From assembly GCA_013359345.1 (NCBI GenBank), contig JABWCA010000003.1, forward strand, positions 1-43,226: a stretch of DNA of 43,226 nucleotides, written 5' to 3'. Positions 35,900-43,226 of this stretch are shown here, one piece after another. Origin of the DNA: Ignavibacteriaceae bacterium (GTDB lineage Bacteria > Bacteroidota > Ignavibacteria > Ignavibacteriales > Ignavibacteriaceae). Each line of letters opens with the position of its first letter. Within the stretch, counting starts at the first letter, position 1. Below the pieces are notes generated by a model. The model saw nothing but the letters and a program-made list of their open reading frames with translations, was not told where the DNA came from and ran no database searches. The position numbers were made by a program, and so were the translations under genes.

Positions 35900-35949
35900 C
35901 TCCCCGCCTGTAAATATTCGAGTTTTTGCATAATCTTTCTGAAATAAAT

Positions 35950-38211
35950 ATGAAGACATTTTTTGTATTTTTTATTTTAATATCTGTTTCGCTTACTCAG
36001 CTTAAAGCACAGACTTCTGCTGAATGGAAAATTTATTCCGATAAAAAGGAAGTGAATTCTGCCATGATCACGGGTTCAGATCTCTGGGCGGCTGCCGGAG
36101 GAGGTGTATTCAGACACACTTTCACTGATTCTTCATATTTACTTTTAACAAAGGCAGAAGGGTTAAACGGTTCCCCGATTAACTCTCTCACCATTGATAA
36201 ATACGGTAAAATCTGGTTCGGGTCTGTAAACGGGATAATTGATGTTTATGATCCTGCCACGGCTAAAACAACCGCAATACTTGATATATTTAATTCCGGA
36301 AGATCTTCAAAAGCTGTTATTAATCTGCAGGCAAAGGGAGATACGGTTATTGCCGCAACTGAATTCGGCATTTCACTGATAAATATCAATGATCTCAATT
36401 TTTATGACTCTTACCTTAAACTCGGCAGCTTTTCAGTGAACACCAAAATTAATGCCGTGCTTTTTGATACCGTTGTGTTTGCCGCAACTCCTGCGGGAAT
36501 TGCCGTTCAGAAAAAGGGATCGGATAACCTCACCGCACCCGAATCATGGTATAATTTTAATACCGCGCAGGGTCTTCCTTCAAATATTGTTTATTCGATA
36601 GTTAACTATAAGGGGAATATAATTGCCGCAACAGAGCGCGGACTTGCAAAATATGAAAACGGTGCCTGGGTTTCTTATCTTCCCGGCCTGAGGAATCAGG
36701 TGATAAACACAATGACGGTTGACGGGGAGAAGCTTATCATTTCCGTAAAAAATACGCTGCAGACCGTGAACCCTTACGGAATTTATTTCACAAAAGACGG
36801 CGCAGTAACCGATTCAATCCTCAATCTCCCGACTATAACATCCATAGCCGGCAGATTCAATGATAAATACTATGTGGCCTCTTCGCTTGGTATGATCATC
36901 ATGAACACAGGATTTGTGGAAGCGATCCTTTATCCTGAAGGACCGGGTGCCAACCTTTTTGCGGATATAAAATCCACAAAAGACGGAAGTCTCTGGATAG
37001 GAAGCGGTACAGACGTTGCAGGAAAAGGCATATATAATTTTACCGGCGAGAAGTGGAAGACTTACGATGTTTCAAACATACCGGGGCTCCCCACAAACGG
37101 TTACAACAATATTCATATTTCCGGAAGTAATGTTTATGCAGGCAGTTACGGCAGAGGTTTCCTCAGAATAAAGCCGGGCAGTCAGTATGATATCTTCACT
37201 GCAGCAAACACCCCCATAAAGGGAATTTCGGCTGATACAAACTATCTTATTATCCCTTCAATTAAAAGCGACTCCAAAGGAAATATCTGGCTGCTGAATT
37301 ACGAAGCTGCCGACCGTAAGATTCTCTTTGCGCTTGATAAATCAGATCAGTTTTTCGGATTTGAGAACCGCCAGAATCAGTTTGTAAGTGTTTACAGGGA
37401 ACTGGAGGTTGATCTTTCTGATACAAAATGGTTTTTTGCGCAGTCAAGAACTGATGTTTTTTATTTCAATGAAAAAGGAACACTCACCACCACCACCGAT
37501 GATGTTTTCGGAGTGATTAATGAGTCGACAGGACTGAACGGGCAAAGGATCAACACAATCAAAATTGATAAGCGCGGCGATCTCTGGATCGGGACCGATC
37601 TTGGGATCAACATCGTTTCAGGCCTCTCATCCGTACTTAACATGGGCGGCTCAACCAAACCAAGGGTTTCATCGGTCTTTTCGGTAAGGCAGCAGAAAAT
37701 TAATGCAATAGTGGTTGATGCCATCAACAGAAAATGGGTAGGCACAGATCAGGGACTGATTCTGCTTTCTTCTGACGGCAGCAATCTGATAGCTGCTTAC
37801 GATTCTAAGAACAGCCCTCTGCTCTCGGACGAAGTGAAAACGCTGGGCATTGATGAAGAAAACGGTATTGTATATATCGGCCAGTCAGGCGGACTAATTG
37901 CTCTCAAAACTGACGCACAGGCACCTGAGCGTGATTACTCAAATCTGCGTGTTTACCCCTCCCCTTACAAAATTAACGGATCCGGGAAACCCCTTACAAT
38001 TGACGGACTTATCAAGGATTCAGAAATAATGATCCTCAACCTTGCCGGCGATCTCATAAGAACACTCTCCACCCCGGGCGGCAGAGTTGCCACATGGGAC
38101 GGAAGGGATACCTCCGGAAATCCTGTGTCATCAGGCATATATTACCTTATTGCACATGATGCAGAGGGAAATACAATCGGGAAAACCAAGTTCGTTGTGA
38201 TTAAAGAATAA
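35950..38211 (+). CDS. PorZ-like beta-propeller protein with type IX-style C-terminal domain
   Basis: From the ATG at 35950 the product has 753 residues and begins with a signal peptide (MKTFFVFFILISVSL, cleaved near KAQ). Two runs of two-component-propeller-type blades follow, each with a hydrophobic-G-x-x-x-G core, such as SLTIDKYGKIWFGSVNGI, IVYSIVNYKGNIIAATERGL, IKSTKDGSLWIGSG and IKIDKRGDLWIGTDLGI. The last about 85 residues start VYPSPYK and end SGIYYLIAHDAEGN...KFVVIKE, a FlgD-like/type A sorting domain. Size, two propellers and terminal domain match PorZ, which works with the type IX secretion sortase. A generic propeller surface protein is the alternative. A TTG 24 bases earlier is in frame but would spoil the signal peptide. 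The ABC-F gene starts 1 base after its stop. Confidence 0.75.
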   Translation: MKTFFVFFILISVSLTQLKAQTSAEWKIYSDKKEVNSAMITGSDLWAAAGGGVFRHTFTDSSYLLLTKAEGLNGSPINSLTIDKYGKIWFGSVNGIIDVYDPATAKTTAILDIFNSGRSSKAVINLQAKGDTVIAATEFGISLININDLNFYDSYLKLGSFSVNTKINAVLFDTVVFAATPAGIAVQKKGSDNLTAPESWYNFNTAQGLPSNIVYSIVNYKGNIIAATERGLAKYENGAWVSYLPGLRNQVINTMTVDGEKLIISVKNTLQTVNPYGIYFTKDGAVTDSILNLPTITSIAGRFNDKYYVASSLGMIIMNTGFVEAILYPEGPGANLFADIKSTKDGSLWIGSGTDVAGKGIYNFTGEKWKTYDVSNIPGLPTNGYNNIHISGSNVYAGSYGRGFLRIKPGSQYDIFTAANTPIKGISADTNYLIIPSIKSDSKGNIWLLNYEAADRKILFALDKSDQFFGFENRQNQFVSVYRELEVDLSDTKWFFAQSRTDVFYFNEKGTLTTTTDDVFGVINESTGLNGQRINTIKIDKRGDLWIGTDLGINIVSGLSSVLNMGGSTKPRVSSVFSVRQQKINAIVVDAINRKWVGTDQGLILLSSDGSNLIAAYDSKNSPLLSDEVKTLGIDEENGIVYIGQSGGLIALKTDAQAPERDYSNLRVYPSPYKINGSGKPLTIDGLIKDSEIMILNLAGDLIRTLSTPGGRVATWDGRDTSGNPVSSGIYYLIAHDAEGNTIGKTKFVVIKE

Positions 38212-38212
38212 T

Positions 38213-40192
38213 ATGCTTGATCTCATTAATGTTTCTCTCCAGTTCGGCGGCGAATACCTCTACCGTAATGTCAGCCTTAAAATCAACAAACTTGACAGAT
38301 TCTGTCTCGTAGGTGCAAACGGCACAGGAAAATCCTCGCTGCTCAAACTCATCAATGGCGAACTCCCCCCTGAATCGGGTGATATCAGTAAAAAGAAGAA
38401 TCTCAGGATAGGTTATCTTCCCCAGGATAATGTAACACACAAAGGGAAGAAACTGCTTGAGGAGGTACTTTCGGGATTATCTGAAATTCAGACACTTCAG
38501 GAACGTGAAAAAGAGATTCATACCCTGCTGGAAGACCCTGCTCATTCAAAAGATGGTGACAGCGCTCTGCTCCAGGAACTCGGCGAAATTCAGCACCGGC
38601 TGATTGACCTCGATTCATACTCCGCAGAATCAAGAGCCGAAAAAATTCTTAAAGGGCTCGGATTCTCTGAGGAGGAATTTGACAGACAGTGTGAGGAATT
38701 CTCCGGCGGATGGCAGATGAGAATTGCGCTCGCTAAAATCCTCCTTTCAAAAAATGAAATTCTCCTTTTGGATGAACCCACCAACCACCTTGATCTCGAA
38801 TCGCTGGCATGGCTGGTGTCATTTCTCAGATCATTTGAGGGAGGCCTGATTGTCGTTTCTCACGACCGCTATTTCGTAAATCAGGTTACAAACAAAACTC
38901 TTGAAATATATCTCAACAAATTCAATGTGTTTAACGGCAACTATGATGCTTACCTCAAATTCAAAGAGGAGCGTGACCGTCTTACAGAGAGCCAGTACAT
39001 TCAGCAGCAAAAGTTTCTCAAGGAAAAGCAGCGTTTCATTGAGCGCTTCAGATACAAATCAAGCAAGGCAAGACAAGTTCAGAGCGTTATCAAACAGATT
39101 GACAAAATTGATCTGATTGAACTTCCCGATGATCAGAACCAGATAAAATTCAGGTTCCCGGTCCCTCCCCCCTCCGGAAAGACTGTAATGGAGCTGAATA
39201 AAATCGGTTTCTCATATCCGGGTAAGCCGATTTTCAGAGATTTTGATTTTACCATCTCCAAAGGTGAAAAAATAGCCTTCGTGGGACCCAACGGAGCAGG
39301 CAAGACAACTCTGGCAAAAATCATAGCAGGCAAGCTTGATGTTCAGCAAGGACATCGTATGCCCGGTTATAACGTTTCAATATCCCATTTTGCCCAGGAT
39401 GTTTACGATGATCTCGATACAGAACTCGATATCATGGATACAATCTATTCAGTCTCAGAGGGGCTTTCAATTCCACAGGTGAGAGCACTGTTGGGCTGCT
39501 TCCTTTTCACAGGTGATGATGTGTTTAAGAAGGTCGGTGTGCTTTCAGGCGGAGAAAAAAGCCGCGTTGCACTTATTAAAATACTCCTGCAGAAATCAAA
39601 CCTGCTTATTTTTGACGAACCCACCAACCATCTCGATTTTGCCAGCAAACAGATACTGCAGAATGCACTTATTGAGTTCACCGGCACAATAATCATTGTT
39701 TCACACGATATTGATTTCCTTAAATCTGTTGTTAACCGTGTTGTGGAAATAAACAGAACCGGTGTTAAAGATTATCCCGGTGATTTTGATTATTATCTTT
39801 ATAAAAAATCACTCCTCACAGAAAATTTATCTGAAGCAAACCAGTCGGCTTCAGCATCCCAAGCTGAGGGTAAACTTGTTAACAGAAAAGATGTAAAAAG
39901 ACTTGAGGCTGAACTCCGTCAGCAGAAGTACAAAGAAACAAAAGACCTTTCTGCAAAACTGAAAAATGTTGAGGATAAGATCCATGCTTCTGAAAAGTTA
40001 ATAACTGAATTTGAAACTGAATTTGCTGCCGGGGAAATCTACAGCAACCCTGATCTTGCCAGAGAAAAAACCACCCGCTATAATGATGAAAAATCTGTGC
40101 TTGATACTCTGATGCTTGAGTGGGAGGAAGTATCTTCCAGACTGGATGAGATAGAAGCTGCATACAAAGAAAAATTTGACGCTCTTGGGTAA
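38213..40192 (+). CDS. ABC-F family ATPase (ribosome-associated)
   Basis: The 659-residue soluble protein has two ABC domains and no membrane segment. Domain 1 has Walker A GANGTGKSS (34-42), signature FSGGWQMRIALAK and LLLDEPTNHLD. Domain 2 has GPNGAGKTT near 360, LSGGEKSRVALIK and LIFDEPTNHLD. The linker between them is rich in charged residues (KFLKEKQRFIERFRYKSSKARQ), the position that reaches into the ribosomal P site in ABC-F factors. A C-terminal coiled coil (about 565-655) resembles Uup. Such proteins relieve stalled or misaligned ribosomes; some confer antibiotic resistance, which cannot be judged here. Confidence 0.95.
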   Translation: MLDLINVSLQFGGEYLYRNVSLKINKLDRFCLVGANGTGKSSLLKLINGELPPESGDISKKKNLRIGYLPQDNVTHKGKKLLEEVLSGLSEIQTLQEREKEIHTLLEDPAHSKDGDSALLQELGEIQHRLIDLDSYSAESRAEKILKGLGFSEEEFDRQCEEFSGGWQMRIALAKILLSKNEILLLDEPTNHLDLESLAWLVSFLRSFEGGLIVVSHDRYFVNQVTNKTLEIYLNKFNVFNGNYDAYLKFKEERDRLTESQYIQQQKFLKEKQRFIERFRYKSSKARQVQSVIKQIDKIDLIELPDDQNQIKFRFPVPPPSGKTVMELNKIGFSYPGKPIFRDFDFTISKGEKIAFVGPNGAGKTTLAKIIAGKLDVQQGHRMPGYNVSISHFAQDVYDDLDTELDIMDTIYSVSEGLSIPQVRALLGCFLFTGDDVFKKVGVLSGGEKSRVALIKILLQKSNLLIFDEPTNHLDFASKQILQNALIEFTGTIIIVSHDIDFLKSVVNRVVEINRTGVKDYPGDFDYYLYKKSLLTENLSEANQSASASQAEGKLVNRKDVKRLEAELRQQKYKETKDLSAKLKNVEDKIHASEKLITEFETEFAAGEIYSNPDLAREKTTRYNDEKSVLDTLMLEWEEVSSRLDEIEAAYKEKFDALG

Positions 40193-40717: not shown

Positions 40718-41143
40718 ATGAAAACGAATCACAGTCTCATCATTTTTCTGTTCATCCTGCTTGCAGGGAGCCTTTATTCACAAAACCGTTTTGAAAGGTG
40801 GAATGGTGTATTCGAAGGGGCAAATAAACAACGGGCAATCAGATTTATTGTGGAACAGGAGGTAATTGATGGAAACGGTTCCCTGGGTGATCCTTCTTTC
40901 AGGTTTTTTGAGGCCCCCGGTTTAAATGAGTTTAGCGAACGGTTCTTAACGCTTGATCCAAGTGATCTTAAATATACAGATAACGTGGCAACATTTAAGT
41001 TACTGATCAAAGGAAAATCAGGGGTTACCCGCACTTTAGATGTCGAATTCAGAAGGGGTGCAGATCCTAAAGATGACATTTATTTAATAAATGACCGGAA
41101 TACTTCCTGGAAAACGGCCATCACTCTGAAGAGGAAAAATTAA
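40718..41143 (+). CDS. Small secreted protein, tandem paralogue 1
   Basis: The 141-residue product has a signal peptide ending LAGSLYSQ, followed by the family block NRFERWNGVFEG (22-33). The mature part is predicted to be mostly beta strands. It shares with paralogues 2 and 3 a G-x-N-G-x-L/E-x-x-x-P-x-F pattern in the middle, a VEFRRGADPKDDIYLI segment, and a basic end TLKRKN. GGAG lies 9 bases before the ATG. There are no cysteines in the mature part and no catalytic motif. I do not recognise the family. It is the first of four copies in a row on this strand. Confidence 0.72.
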   Translation: MKTNHSLIIFLFILLAGSLYSQNRFERWNGVFEGANKQRAIRFIVEQEVIDGNGSLGDPSFRFFEAPGLNEFSERFLTLDPSDLKYTDNVATFKLLIKGKSGVTRTLDVEFRRGADPKDDIYLINDRNTSWKTAITLKRKN

Positions 41144-41532
41144 TATTCTGCAATCGGGGAAGCAGAAAATTCCTTGCAGATTCATAAGTAATTGGAATAA
41201 TTCTTTCATCTGTTAAACCCTATACGGCTCTGCCACTTAAATCAGGAGAAAGTTTTCTTTGAGGATTTTTGCGGAACGGAAGACTGGTGGTATTTTCTCC
41301 AGGTAATGGGCTGAATTTAGAATGAAAGCTTTAATTCTGTTGAAAAGCTCAATTGCATCGGAAGGAATTCTTCTCAGAGCTTAATCAGCAATGTTTTTAC
41401 AGTTATTCAACCCGGGTTAACTAACCCTTACAAGTAAAGATCTGCTTAAAATTAAAGGCAAAAAAAATAAGGCAACATCTATCAGTCAATTTATCTGATA
41501 ATCAGTTACAGACATCTTAATCAGGAGCATAA
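41144..41532. other. Intergenic region between paralogues 1 and 2
   Basis: This 389-base gap has no plausible gene and no clear remnant of a further paralogue. A 10-base palindrome AACCCGGGTT lies at 41409-41418 and overlaps a second small inverted repeat GGGTT/AACCC. It is far longer than the 78- and 69-base gaps between the later copies. Confidence 0.5.
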
Positions 41533-41964
41533 ATGAAAACAAAACTATTCATAATTTTTCTTTTTATCCTGCTTGCAGGAAGCCTTTATTCACAAAACCA
41601 GTATGAAAGATGGAACGGAGTCTTTGAAGGTGGGAGCGGGAACTACTCATTTATCTTTGATGTATACCAACAGACAATCGGTATTAACGGCGAAAAAAGT
41701 TCACCGATTTTTACTGTTCACAGGTTACAGAGGGGAAAAAAGATTACTTTAACCCGGGATGTATCTGCCAGGGACATCTCACCTGAGAAAGACTTTACTC
41801 TTTACACTACAGGCATGAACCGAACCGGCGGAAAACCCCTCCTTAATGCTTCTTTCAAACAAGGTGCTGCCCCAAAGGATGACACTTATGAAATATCGAA
41901 ATATTTTGGATTTCCGTCCGGGGAGGAAGACTTCAGTACGATTGTGCTTAAAAGAGTTAAATAA
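41533..41964 (+). CDS. Small secreted protein, tandem paralogue 2
   Basis: The 143-residue product has the signal peptide FLFILLAGSLYSQ, nearly identical to paralogue 1, then NQYERWNGVFEG. Further shared segments are IGINGEKSSPIFTV, SFKQGAAPKDDTYEI and the basic end VLKRVK. AGGAG lies 8 bases before the ATG. The strongly conserved signal peptide and first 12 mature residues, against a diverging middle, suggest duplication followed by fast change in the body. Function is unknown. Confidence 0.72.
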   Translation: MKTKLFIIFLFILLAGSLYSQNQYERWNGVFEGGSGNYSFIFDVYQQTIGINGEKSSPIFTVHRLQRGKKITLTRDVSARDISPEKDFTLYTTGMNRTGGKPLLNASFKQGAAPKDDTYEISKYFGFPSGEEDFSTIVLKRVK

Positions 41965-42042
41965 TCTCCCGGAAATTGAAGTGTTATCAGATATTGGACT
42001 GTATAAAACATTAATTATTAATTAAACCGGATAACTACACAA

Positions 42043-42504
42043 ATGAAAACAAAACACATTTTCGTCATTTTTCTTTTTTTCTTAACAGTTAATCTTTTAT
42101 CCCAGAACAAGTATGAAAGAATGAACGGGATTTTTGAAGGCAGCTCGGCCCCCTTATCAGATGATATGCCCGGTGCAGTGTATTACTTTAAATTTGAAGT
42201 CTGGCAAGATATAATTGGGGCAAATGGGGAGTTGAGTCAACCAAATTTCAGAATTTACAACGGGATTCAGGGTAATGAGCCATTTGTTCTCATGGAACAA
42301 GCGAGGGCAATTAATAGCGGGGATTATAATCCCGATGAAGTGATTGTCTTACAAGGAGGCGGGCGTCAGGGTGAACCGTCCTTCAGAATTGAATGCCGGT
42401 TCATCCGGGGTACTTCCCGAAATGAAGATAAGTATGTGATAGATCTGTTTGACTTTGTTGGAGCGTGGGATTTTCAACCCGTCACTATCCATAGAATTAA
42501 ATAA
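42043..42504 (+). CDS. Small secreted protein, tandem paralogue 3
   Basis: The 153-residue product has a signal peptide ending TVNLLSQ, then NKYERMNGIFEG. It shares IIGANGELSQPNFRIY with paralogue 2 and has CRFIRGTSRNEDKYVI where the others have RGADPKDDIYLI or QGAAPKDDTYEI. It ends TIHRIK. It is the longest and most diverged of the three complete copies, with an extra loop (SSAPLSDDMPG) after the first block. It starts 78 bases after paralogue 2 and probably shares a transcript with it. No ribosome site of the GGAG type is visible. Confidence 0.7.
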   Translation: MKTKHIFVIFLFFLTVNLLSQNKYERMNGIFEGSSAPLSDDMPGAVYYFKFEVWQDIIGANGELSQPNFRIYNGIQGNEPFVLMEQARAINSGDYNPDEVIVLQGGGRQGEPSFRIECRFIRGTSRNEDKYVIDLFDFVGAWDFQPVTIHRIK

Positions 42505-42573
42505 TGATTTAGTGGGACTTAAAATCCTTTTAATAATTTATCTGATTTTTTTCCTTCAAACAGGGCAATACAA

Positions 42574-42708
42574 ATGAGGACAATACACTGTTTAATCCTT
42601 TCTATGTTTTTCTTCACGGGTACTCTTCTGTCCCAGAATCAGTATGACAGAATGAAGGAAACAGGAAGCAGGAGGCAGGATGCGGGAAGCAGGAAGCAAG
42701 AACAGTGA
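42574..42708 (+). pseudogene. Paralogue 4, truncated and fused to heptamer repeats
   Basis: The ATG at 42574 opens a 44-codon frame. Residues 1-27 are a good family N-terminus: a signal peptide ending TGTLLSQ, then NQYDRM, aligned with NKYERM of paralogue 3. At base 42657 the homology stops and the frame runs into 7-base repeats, giving KETGSRRQDAGSRKQEQ and a TGA at 42706. The breakpoint coincides with the first repeat unit. Downstream, GAATTAAATAAT at 43041 matches the end of paralogue 3 (42493) and may be a remnant of the original 3' end. I treat it as a broken gene; a short secreted peptide is not excluded. Confidence 0.7.
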
Positions 42709-42804: not shown

Positions 42805-42870
42805 GGTGCATTATGCCGGTTACCACTGTCGAAATGCTTTTCGGCTGTGAAATGCTTAGAACCGAAAGAA

Positions 42871-42947
42871 GGAAACAGGAGGCAAGATGCGGGATACAGG
42901 ACACAGGATGAAGGAAACAGGGGGTAAGATGCAGGAGTCAGGAATCA
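42871..42947 (+). repeat. 7-base tandem repeat, GGAARCA type, tract 3
   Basis: Eleven heptamers in unbroken phase: GGAAACA, GGAGGCA, AGATGCG, GGATACA, GGACACA, GGATGAA, GGAAACA, GGGGGTA, AGATGCA, GGAGTCA and GGAATCA. Substitutions are common but there is no insertion or deletion. Confidence 0.85.
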
Positions 42948-43096: not shown

Positions 43097-43098
43097 CA

Positions 43099-43226
43099 AC
43101 GAACAACGAACAACGAGTAACGATTTACGGTCAACGAGCAACGAACAACGAGCAACGATCTACGGTCAACGAGCAACGAACAACGAACAACGAACAACGA
43201 GTAACGATTTACGGTCAACGAGCAAC
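43099..43226 (+). repeat. 7-base tandem repeat, ACGNNNN type, 18 units, running off the window
   Basis: From 43099 to 43224 there are 18 complete heptamers, every one beginning ACG, without a phase slip. The types are ACGAACA, ACGAGCA, ACGAGTA, ACGATTT, ACGATCT and ACGGTCA. The block of units 3-6 (ending types GTA, TTT, GTCA, GCA) is repeated exactly as units 15-18, and units 8-11 are a close variant. The tract continues past the window edge. No open frame of note runs through it. Confidence 0.92.

What the first reader, a model, noticed from the sequence alone, without database searches (positions are those of the whole stretch)
40718..42708. Tandem family of small secreted proteins with fixed head and variable body
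Four consecutive genes share a signal peptide ending in SQ and a first mature block N-x-Y/F-E/D-R-W/M, continued in the three intact copies as N-G-V/I-F-E-G. A D/E-K/D-x-Y-x-I segment and a basic tail are also shared by the three, while the middle diverges. I recognise no known family. A conserved head with changing body suggests display of variable surfaces, or toxins, inhibitors or adhesins under selection.
Basis: seen in the sequence. Interest (0 to 1): 0.7.

Follow-up and report, generated by a model that had tools for sequence, protein, structure and literature searches.

The report
Tandem small exported beta-barrel protein family
A bacterium carries three intact and at least one broken copy, side by side, of an unknown small exported protein that is predicted to fold into a little barrel and was found in none of the related genomes searched; it is probably a locally born family of binding proteins, real but fairly ordinary.

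Summary
Three intact, full-length homologous genes (40718-41143, 41533-41964, 42043-42504, +) and a truncated fourth (42574-42708) share an export signal and the head N-x-[YF]-[ED]-R-[WM]. Each intact copy is recognised by a profile of the other two. The head is constrained at the protein level (nonsynonymous change low, synonymous change mostly near saturation), so it is not recent gene conversion. Adaptive diversification of the body is not shown. No relative was found: 1 of 391 class genomes (this one), and nothing in Pfam, NCBIfam, PHROGs, PADLOC, phages or plasmids. AlphaFold models of two copies agree on a signal helix plus eight antiparallel strands, a calycin-like barrel (best Z 9.5, pTM 0.71). 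In relatives ABC-F is followed directly by ROK and KsgA; here contig C22 continues that order and begins with a near-copy of the truncated gene. So this is a lineage-specific insertion at a convergent gene boundary, expanded in tandem, whose last copies were overrun by heptamer repeats found mainly in this genome. Most likely function: soluble periplasmic or extracellular binders whose middle strands differ. A protease-inhibitor role is the main rival. Function is untested.

The parts
40718..41143 (+). copy 1, 141 aa, intact
   Evidence: mature BLASTP to copy 2 E 6e-14
41533..41964 (+). copy 2, 143 aa, intact; modelled with pLDDT 71, pTM 0.65
42043..42504 (+). copy 3, 153 aa, intact; modelled with pLDDT 75, pTM 0.71
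42574..42708 (+). copy 4, 44 aa: signal and head only, body replaced by heptamer repeats
   Evidence: (profile match 1-57 with an inner TGA)
42656..42702 (+). AGGAAGC heptamer array that replaces the body of copy 4
42870..42943 (+). second AGGAAGC-like array (period 21)
43097..43226 (+). CAACGAR heptamer array at the contig end
38213..40192 (+). ABC-F ATPase, left boundary of the insertion; normally followed by ROK and KsgA in relatives
35926..38211 (+). PorZ (type IX secretion), conserved neighbour of ABC-F

Best explanation
A lineage-restricted family of small Sec-exported proteins. After removal of the signal each folds as one eight-stranded antiparallel, calycin-like beta-barrel. The conserved N-terminal extension and first strand, together with the last two strands, probably close and register the barrel; the divergent middle strands and loops set what is bound. 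The genes arose by tandem duplication at a permissive convergent boundary between ABC-F and ROK. Three copies remain intact; the copies at the far end have lost their bodies to heptamer arrays. Shown: homology, export-type signals, protein-level constraint on the head, absence from the searched relatives, insertion at a syntenic boundary. Predicted: the barrel. Inferred: that they bind small ligands or partner proteins in the periplasm or outside, and which part does what.
For: Two models put their eight strands in matching alignment columns. VIA-align matches span the whole mature protein: Z 9.5 (rmsd 3.4, 109 aligned) to a designed beta-barrel, 8.5 to monomeric streptavidin, 8.5 to the PvdP barrel, about 7 to nitrophorins. 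Identity by strand is highest in the first (0.67) and the last two (0.40, 0.47) and lower in the others (0.13-0.33). Signal-plus-head dN 0.09-0.26 against body dN 0.71-0.95. Family in 1 of 391 class genomes, the window's own. ROK follows ABC-F in 31 of 34 usable regions of relatives, with at most 113 bases between alignment ends in 26 of 31; contig C22 carries a fifth head and then GAF-SpoIIE, ROK, KsgA.
Against: The models rest on three sequences and are not independent; pLDDT 71-75; no Foldseek match at E <= 0.001; Z 8-9.5 among all-beta barrels can mean only a common arrangement. No expression data. A small barrel fold does not tell function.
Confidence: 0.45

Rival explanations
1. Protease inhibitors built like the I38 (Inh/AprI) family: a short conserved N-terminal segment enters a protease and the barrel face, variable here, chooses the protease.
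For: The mature protein starts with a conserved segment of about seven residues before strand 1. I38 inhibitors are periplasmic eight-strand barrels preceded by about ten residues whose first five block the protease, with contacts through strands 3-5 (PMC9486555, passages); strands 3-5 are among the most variable here. Omp19 barrel at Z 5.1.
Against: No Pfam match in mature proteins up to E 10; copies 1 and 2 have no cysteine and copy 3 has one, whereas that paper marks conserved cysteines; Omp19 is not among the 50 rows shown for the better model.
Confidence: 0.15
2. A set of variable surface or display proteins kept diverse by selection or recombination.
For: Fixed head and divergent body in tandem; T9SS gene porZ nearby.
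Against: Synonymous sites in the head are mostly near saturation, so no sign of recent exchange between copies; no T9SS sorting domain; porZ and ABC-F are neighbours in relatives that lack the family.
Confidence: 0.08
3. Secreted toxins or bacteriocins.
For: Small, exported, lineage-specific, basic tail.
Against: No toxin, immunity or defence model matched; no separate immunity-like gene is evident between copies.
Confidence: 0.06
4. A decaying gene cluster without present function.
For: Copy 4 and the C22 copy are truncated; body dN is high.
Against: Three copies keep full reading frames and conserved late motifs; nonsynonymous change is below synonymous in every segment and pair.
Confidence: 0.12
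5. A relative of the Cap15 cyclic-dinucleotide receptor barrel.
For: Cap15 barrel at Z 8.2; a virus record named SMODS-associating 2TM beta-strand rich effector is the second Foldseek row (E 0.022, probability 1.00, TM 0.48).
Against: A single cleavable-type signal rather than two membrane helices; no PADLOC or Pfam match.
Confidence: 0.03

Closest known systems
Lipocalins and other calycins (nitrobindin, streptavidin, nitrophorins)
   Same: predicted eight-strand antiparallel barrel, exported, conserved first strand and variable rest
   Different: no sequence match to any Pfam family; no G-x-W motif (here G-[VI]-F); ligand unknown
I38 Inh/AprI protease inhibitors
   Same: small exported barrel with a short conserved N-terminal extension
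   Different: no profile match, no conserved cysteine pair, several paralogues in tandem
Intergenic TAACTGA heptamer repeats of Beggiatoaceae, Cyanobacteria and some Bacteroidetes (PMC4679880, passages)
   Same: runs of seven-base units in tandem, spread over one genome and scarce in others
   Different: other units (CAACGAR, CAGGARN); here one array lies inside a truncated gene instead of just upstream of a start codon

Membership tests
tandem paralogous gene family | full-length homology of neighbouring genes | tested here: met
lipocalin family | match to a lipocalin profile | tested here: not met
   no Pfam match up to E 10 for three mature proteins
lipocalin family | structurally conserved region 1 with G-x-W (motif recalled; PMC2254393 passages name three such regions without giving letters, and say that outlier lipocalins lack some) | tested here: not met
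   G-[VI]-F-E-G in all three copies
lipocalin family / calycin superfamily | eight-strand antiparallel barrel | tested here: inconclusive
   two predicted models agree; Z up to 9.5, none significant by Foldseek
lipocalin family | binding of a small hydrophobic ligand | not testable with these tools
   needs protein
I38 Inh/AprI inhibitors | Inh profile | tested here: not met
   no Pfam match up to E 10
I38 Inh/AprI inhibitors | conserved cysteines | tested here: not met
   0, 0 and 1 cysteine in the three copies; conserved cysteines marked in PMC9486555
I38 Inh/AprI inhibitors | short N-terminal segment before an eight-strand barrel | tested here: inconclusive
   strand 1 starts at residue 29, mature residue 8, in both models
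T9SS cargo | C-terminal sorting domain | tested here: not met
   0 NCBIfam families for the three proteins up to E 1; in Pfam only two weak matches to the N-terminal ends, below cut-off
Cap15 receptors | Cap15 profile | tested here: not met
   no PADLOC match up to E 1 and no Pfam match up to E 10
Cap15 receptors | two N-terminal membrane helices | tested here: not met
   one N-terminal helix in both models, in a cleavable-type signal
Cap15 receptors | neighbouring CD-NTase gene | not tested
   the window was not scanned for it

The most novel reading that the evidence does not exclude
A locally invented battery of exported inhibitors or binders: one fixed N-terminal warhead is reused in front of barrels whose middle strands differ, each for another target, while heptamer arrays that spread mainly in this genome erode the end of the array and change copy number.
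Probability: 0.1. Interest if true: 0.55.

Novelty: new member of a known kind. Interest (0 to 1): 0.3.

Why it matters
It is a clean small case of family birth: a nearly empty boundary in most relatives, three diverged intact copies, then broken copies with the likely agent of decay still visible. The protein sequence family was in none of the libraries searched, so a structure or binding partner would name a new family. It is not a new kind of system, because lineage-specific tandem families of small exported proteins are common (general knowledge).

Tried and rejected
Signal-peptide-only matches were rejected as relatives: Paludibacter locus L006, residues 1-56 of the query in a 414-aa protein; own contigs C243 and C223; the three relatives among the four matching genomes, all partial and at E 0.006-0.008 (two over the signal and head, one over residues 12-82 with a stop inside). 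Three partial matches elsewhere in the phylum at E 0.001-0.009 cover different parts of the profile; only one locus (L108) was looked at, and its neighbourhood holds a long receptor-like ORF. Nine relatives at E 0.05-0.36 are partial and were dropped.

Recent gene conversion of the head was considered and rejected on synonymous changes; the signal of copies 1 and 2 is less saturated (0.41 per site), so it is not excluded for that stretch. Foreign origin by composition: GC 0.40-0.41 and third-position GC 0.39-0.41, like the neighbours, so no sign of it. A hidden decayed copy in the gap between copies 1 and 2 was sought with sensitive tblastn and not found. The promoter scan was at chance level (5 found, 7.2 expected); the terminator scan gave 4 against 1.9 expected and no conclusion.

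The C22 copy might be an allele from a second strain in the assembly rather than a fifth copy; the two truncated ORFs differ by 3 synonymous and 4 nonsynonymous codons of 44, which does not decide it. Its role as the downstream contig rests on gene order, not on a join.

Foldseek rows to other beta-rich domains, among them toxin receptor-binding domains at probability 0.1-0.25, were taken as chance and not followed. Papers: only search listings and passages (PMC8420045, PMC4679880, PMC9486555, PMC2254393) were seen. No paper on this family turned up in those searches. The viral-contig scan with the GAPDH protein was a misjudged control and is not used.

Full report
What is there. The window is a whole 43,226-base contig (C363) of a 4.26 Mb genome in 454 contigs. 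Downstream of porZ and an ABC-F gene lie three intact plus-strand genes of 141, 143 and 153 codons and a fourth ORF of 44 codons. Two details change. The late shared segment is [DE]-D-x-Y-x-I. Signals ending in SQ or AQ are also found in other exported proteins of this genome, so that part is not special.

Is it more than chance? Yes. Without the signal the three pairs score E 6e-14, 1e-15 and 2e-9. A profile of any two copies finds the third at E 1.5e-9 or better, and at 1.7e-4 or better when the head is removed; shuffled copies reach at most 6.5 bits. So the whole mature proteins are homologous, not only the heads. The head holds 8 identical columns of 12, the body 18 of 102 (p 7e-4 with three sequences).

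How it evolved. In the 12-codon head nonsynonymous change is 0.08-0.22 per site while synonymous change is 0.5 to about 1.05 per site; the body has 0.46-0.54 and 0.69-0.77 (Nei-Gojobori counts). The head is held by selection on the protein and shows no sign of recent copying between genes. The signal of copies 1 and 2 is less saturated (0.41). Because synonymous sites of the body are near saturation, positive selection can be neither shown nor excluded.

Where else it occurs. A mature-protein profile found the family in 1 of 391 genomes of the class, all three matches being these genes. In 395 genomes drawn from the phylum, which overlap with the class draw, three others gave partial matches at E 0.001-0.009. 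With the limit at E 5, nine of the 79 other members of the family gave partial ones. A scan of the species-genome collection by short peptides found only a signal-peptide match. Phages, plasmids, viral contigs, PHROGs, NCBIfam, PADLOC and solved structures gave none of note. The leave-one-out test suggests that a relative as far off as the copies are from each other would have been seen. The window's genome is the only one of its genus among the 80 family genomes, so closer relatives are simply not sampled.

Where it sits. In the relatives examined, ABC-F beside porZ is followed by a ROK gene pointing back and, as a rule, by KsgA. Of 40 fetched regions, 5 are not downstream of a porZ-linked ABC-F and 1 is only 76 bases long; of the other 34, ROK follows in 31, KsgA alone in 1, neither in 2. 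Between alignment ends there are at most 113 bases in 26 of 31, and 0.45-3.4 kb of unrelated genes in 5. Contig C22 of the window's genome starts with a truncated head and tail 80% identical in DNA to those of the fourth copy, then GAF-SpoIIE phosphatase, ROK, KsgA and a UbiE-like methyltransferase. By gene order C22 is the continuation of the window. The family thus occupies a place that is nearly empty in most relatives, and the assembly broke inside its repeats. The size of the gap, and any further copies in it, are unknown. C22 may instead hold an allele from a second strain.

The broken copies. After R-M the fourth copy runs into AGGAAGC heptamers (42656-42702), and the contig ends in CAACGAR heptamers (43097-43226). 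Three units of CAACGAR match 15 times in this genome, overlapping places counted, and 0 times in 79 relatives; three units of CAGGARN match 22 times here and 3 times in 2 of 79 relatives. The arrays are thus largely peculiar to this genome. That they caused the truncation is an inference.

Structure. AlphaFold gave pLDDT 71, pTM 0.65 for copy 2 and pLDDT 75, pTM 0.71 for copy 3, each with one helix over the signal and eight strands, in overlapping alignment columns. Both runs used the same three sequences. Foldseek found nothing at E <= 0.001. VIA-align gave Z up to 7.3 and 9.5, the best rows being designed barrels, streptavidin, PvdP and Cap15, with nitrophorins lower. The fold class is likely; no family follows from it.

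How it most likely works. I take the proteins to be soluble exported barrels that bind something, with conserved first and last strands as frame and variable middle strands as specificity (confidence 0.45). The inhibitor reading (0.15) fits the short conserved extension before strand 1 and is directly testable.

Verdict. A real, new but small lineage-specific family of a known kind. Interest 0.3.

Noticed in passing
42656-42702, 42870-42943, 43097-43226; other contigs of G000: Two kinds of heptamer array (CAACGAR and CAGGARN) occur on many contigs of this genome and hardly in 79 relatives; in contig C434 both kinds lie within about 100 bases on one strand.
   Followed up: partly
window 35926-40192: porZ and an ABC-F gene are neighbours in all 34 usable regions of relatives, followed by ROK and KsgA in most; the ABC-F/ROK boundary took up unrelated genes in 5 of 31.
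   Followed up: partly
L030 (C22) 531-1790, minus: A GAF-SpoIIE phosphatase lies between the truncated copy and ROK; only 1 of 79 relatives has a match at E <= 1e-100.
   Followed up: no
40755-40768 and 41567-41580: The signal-coding part of copies 1 and 2 holds a five-pair stem TCCTGCTTGCAGG followed by a T-rich stretch, scored as terminator-like.
   Followed up: no
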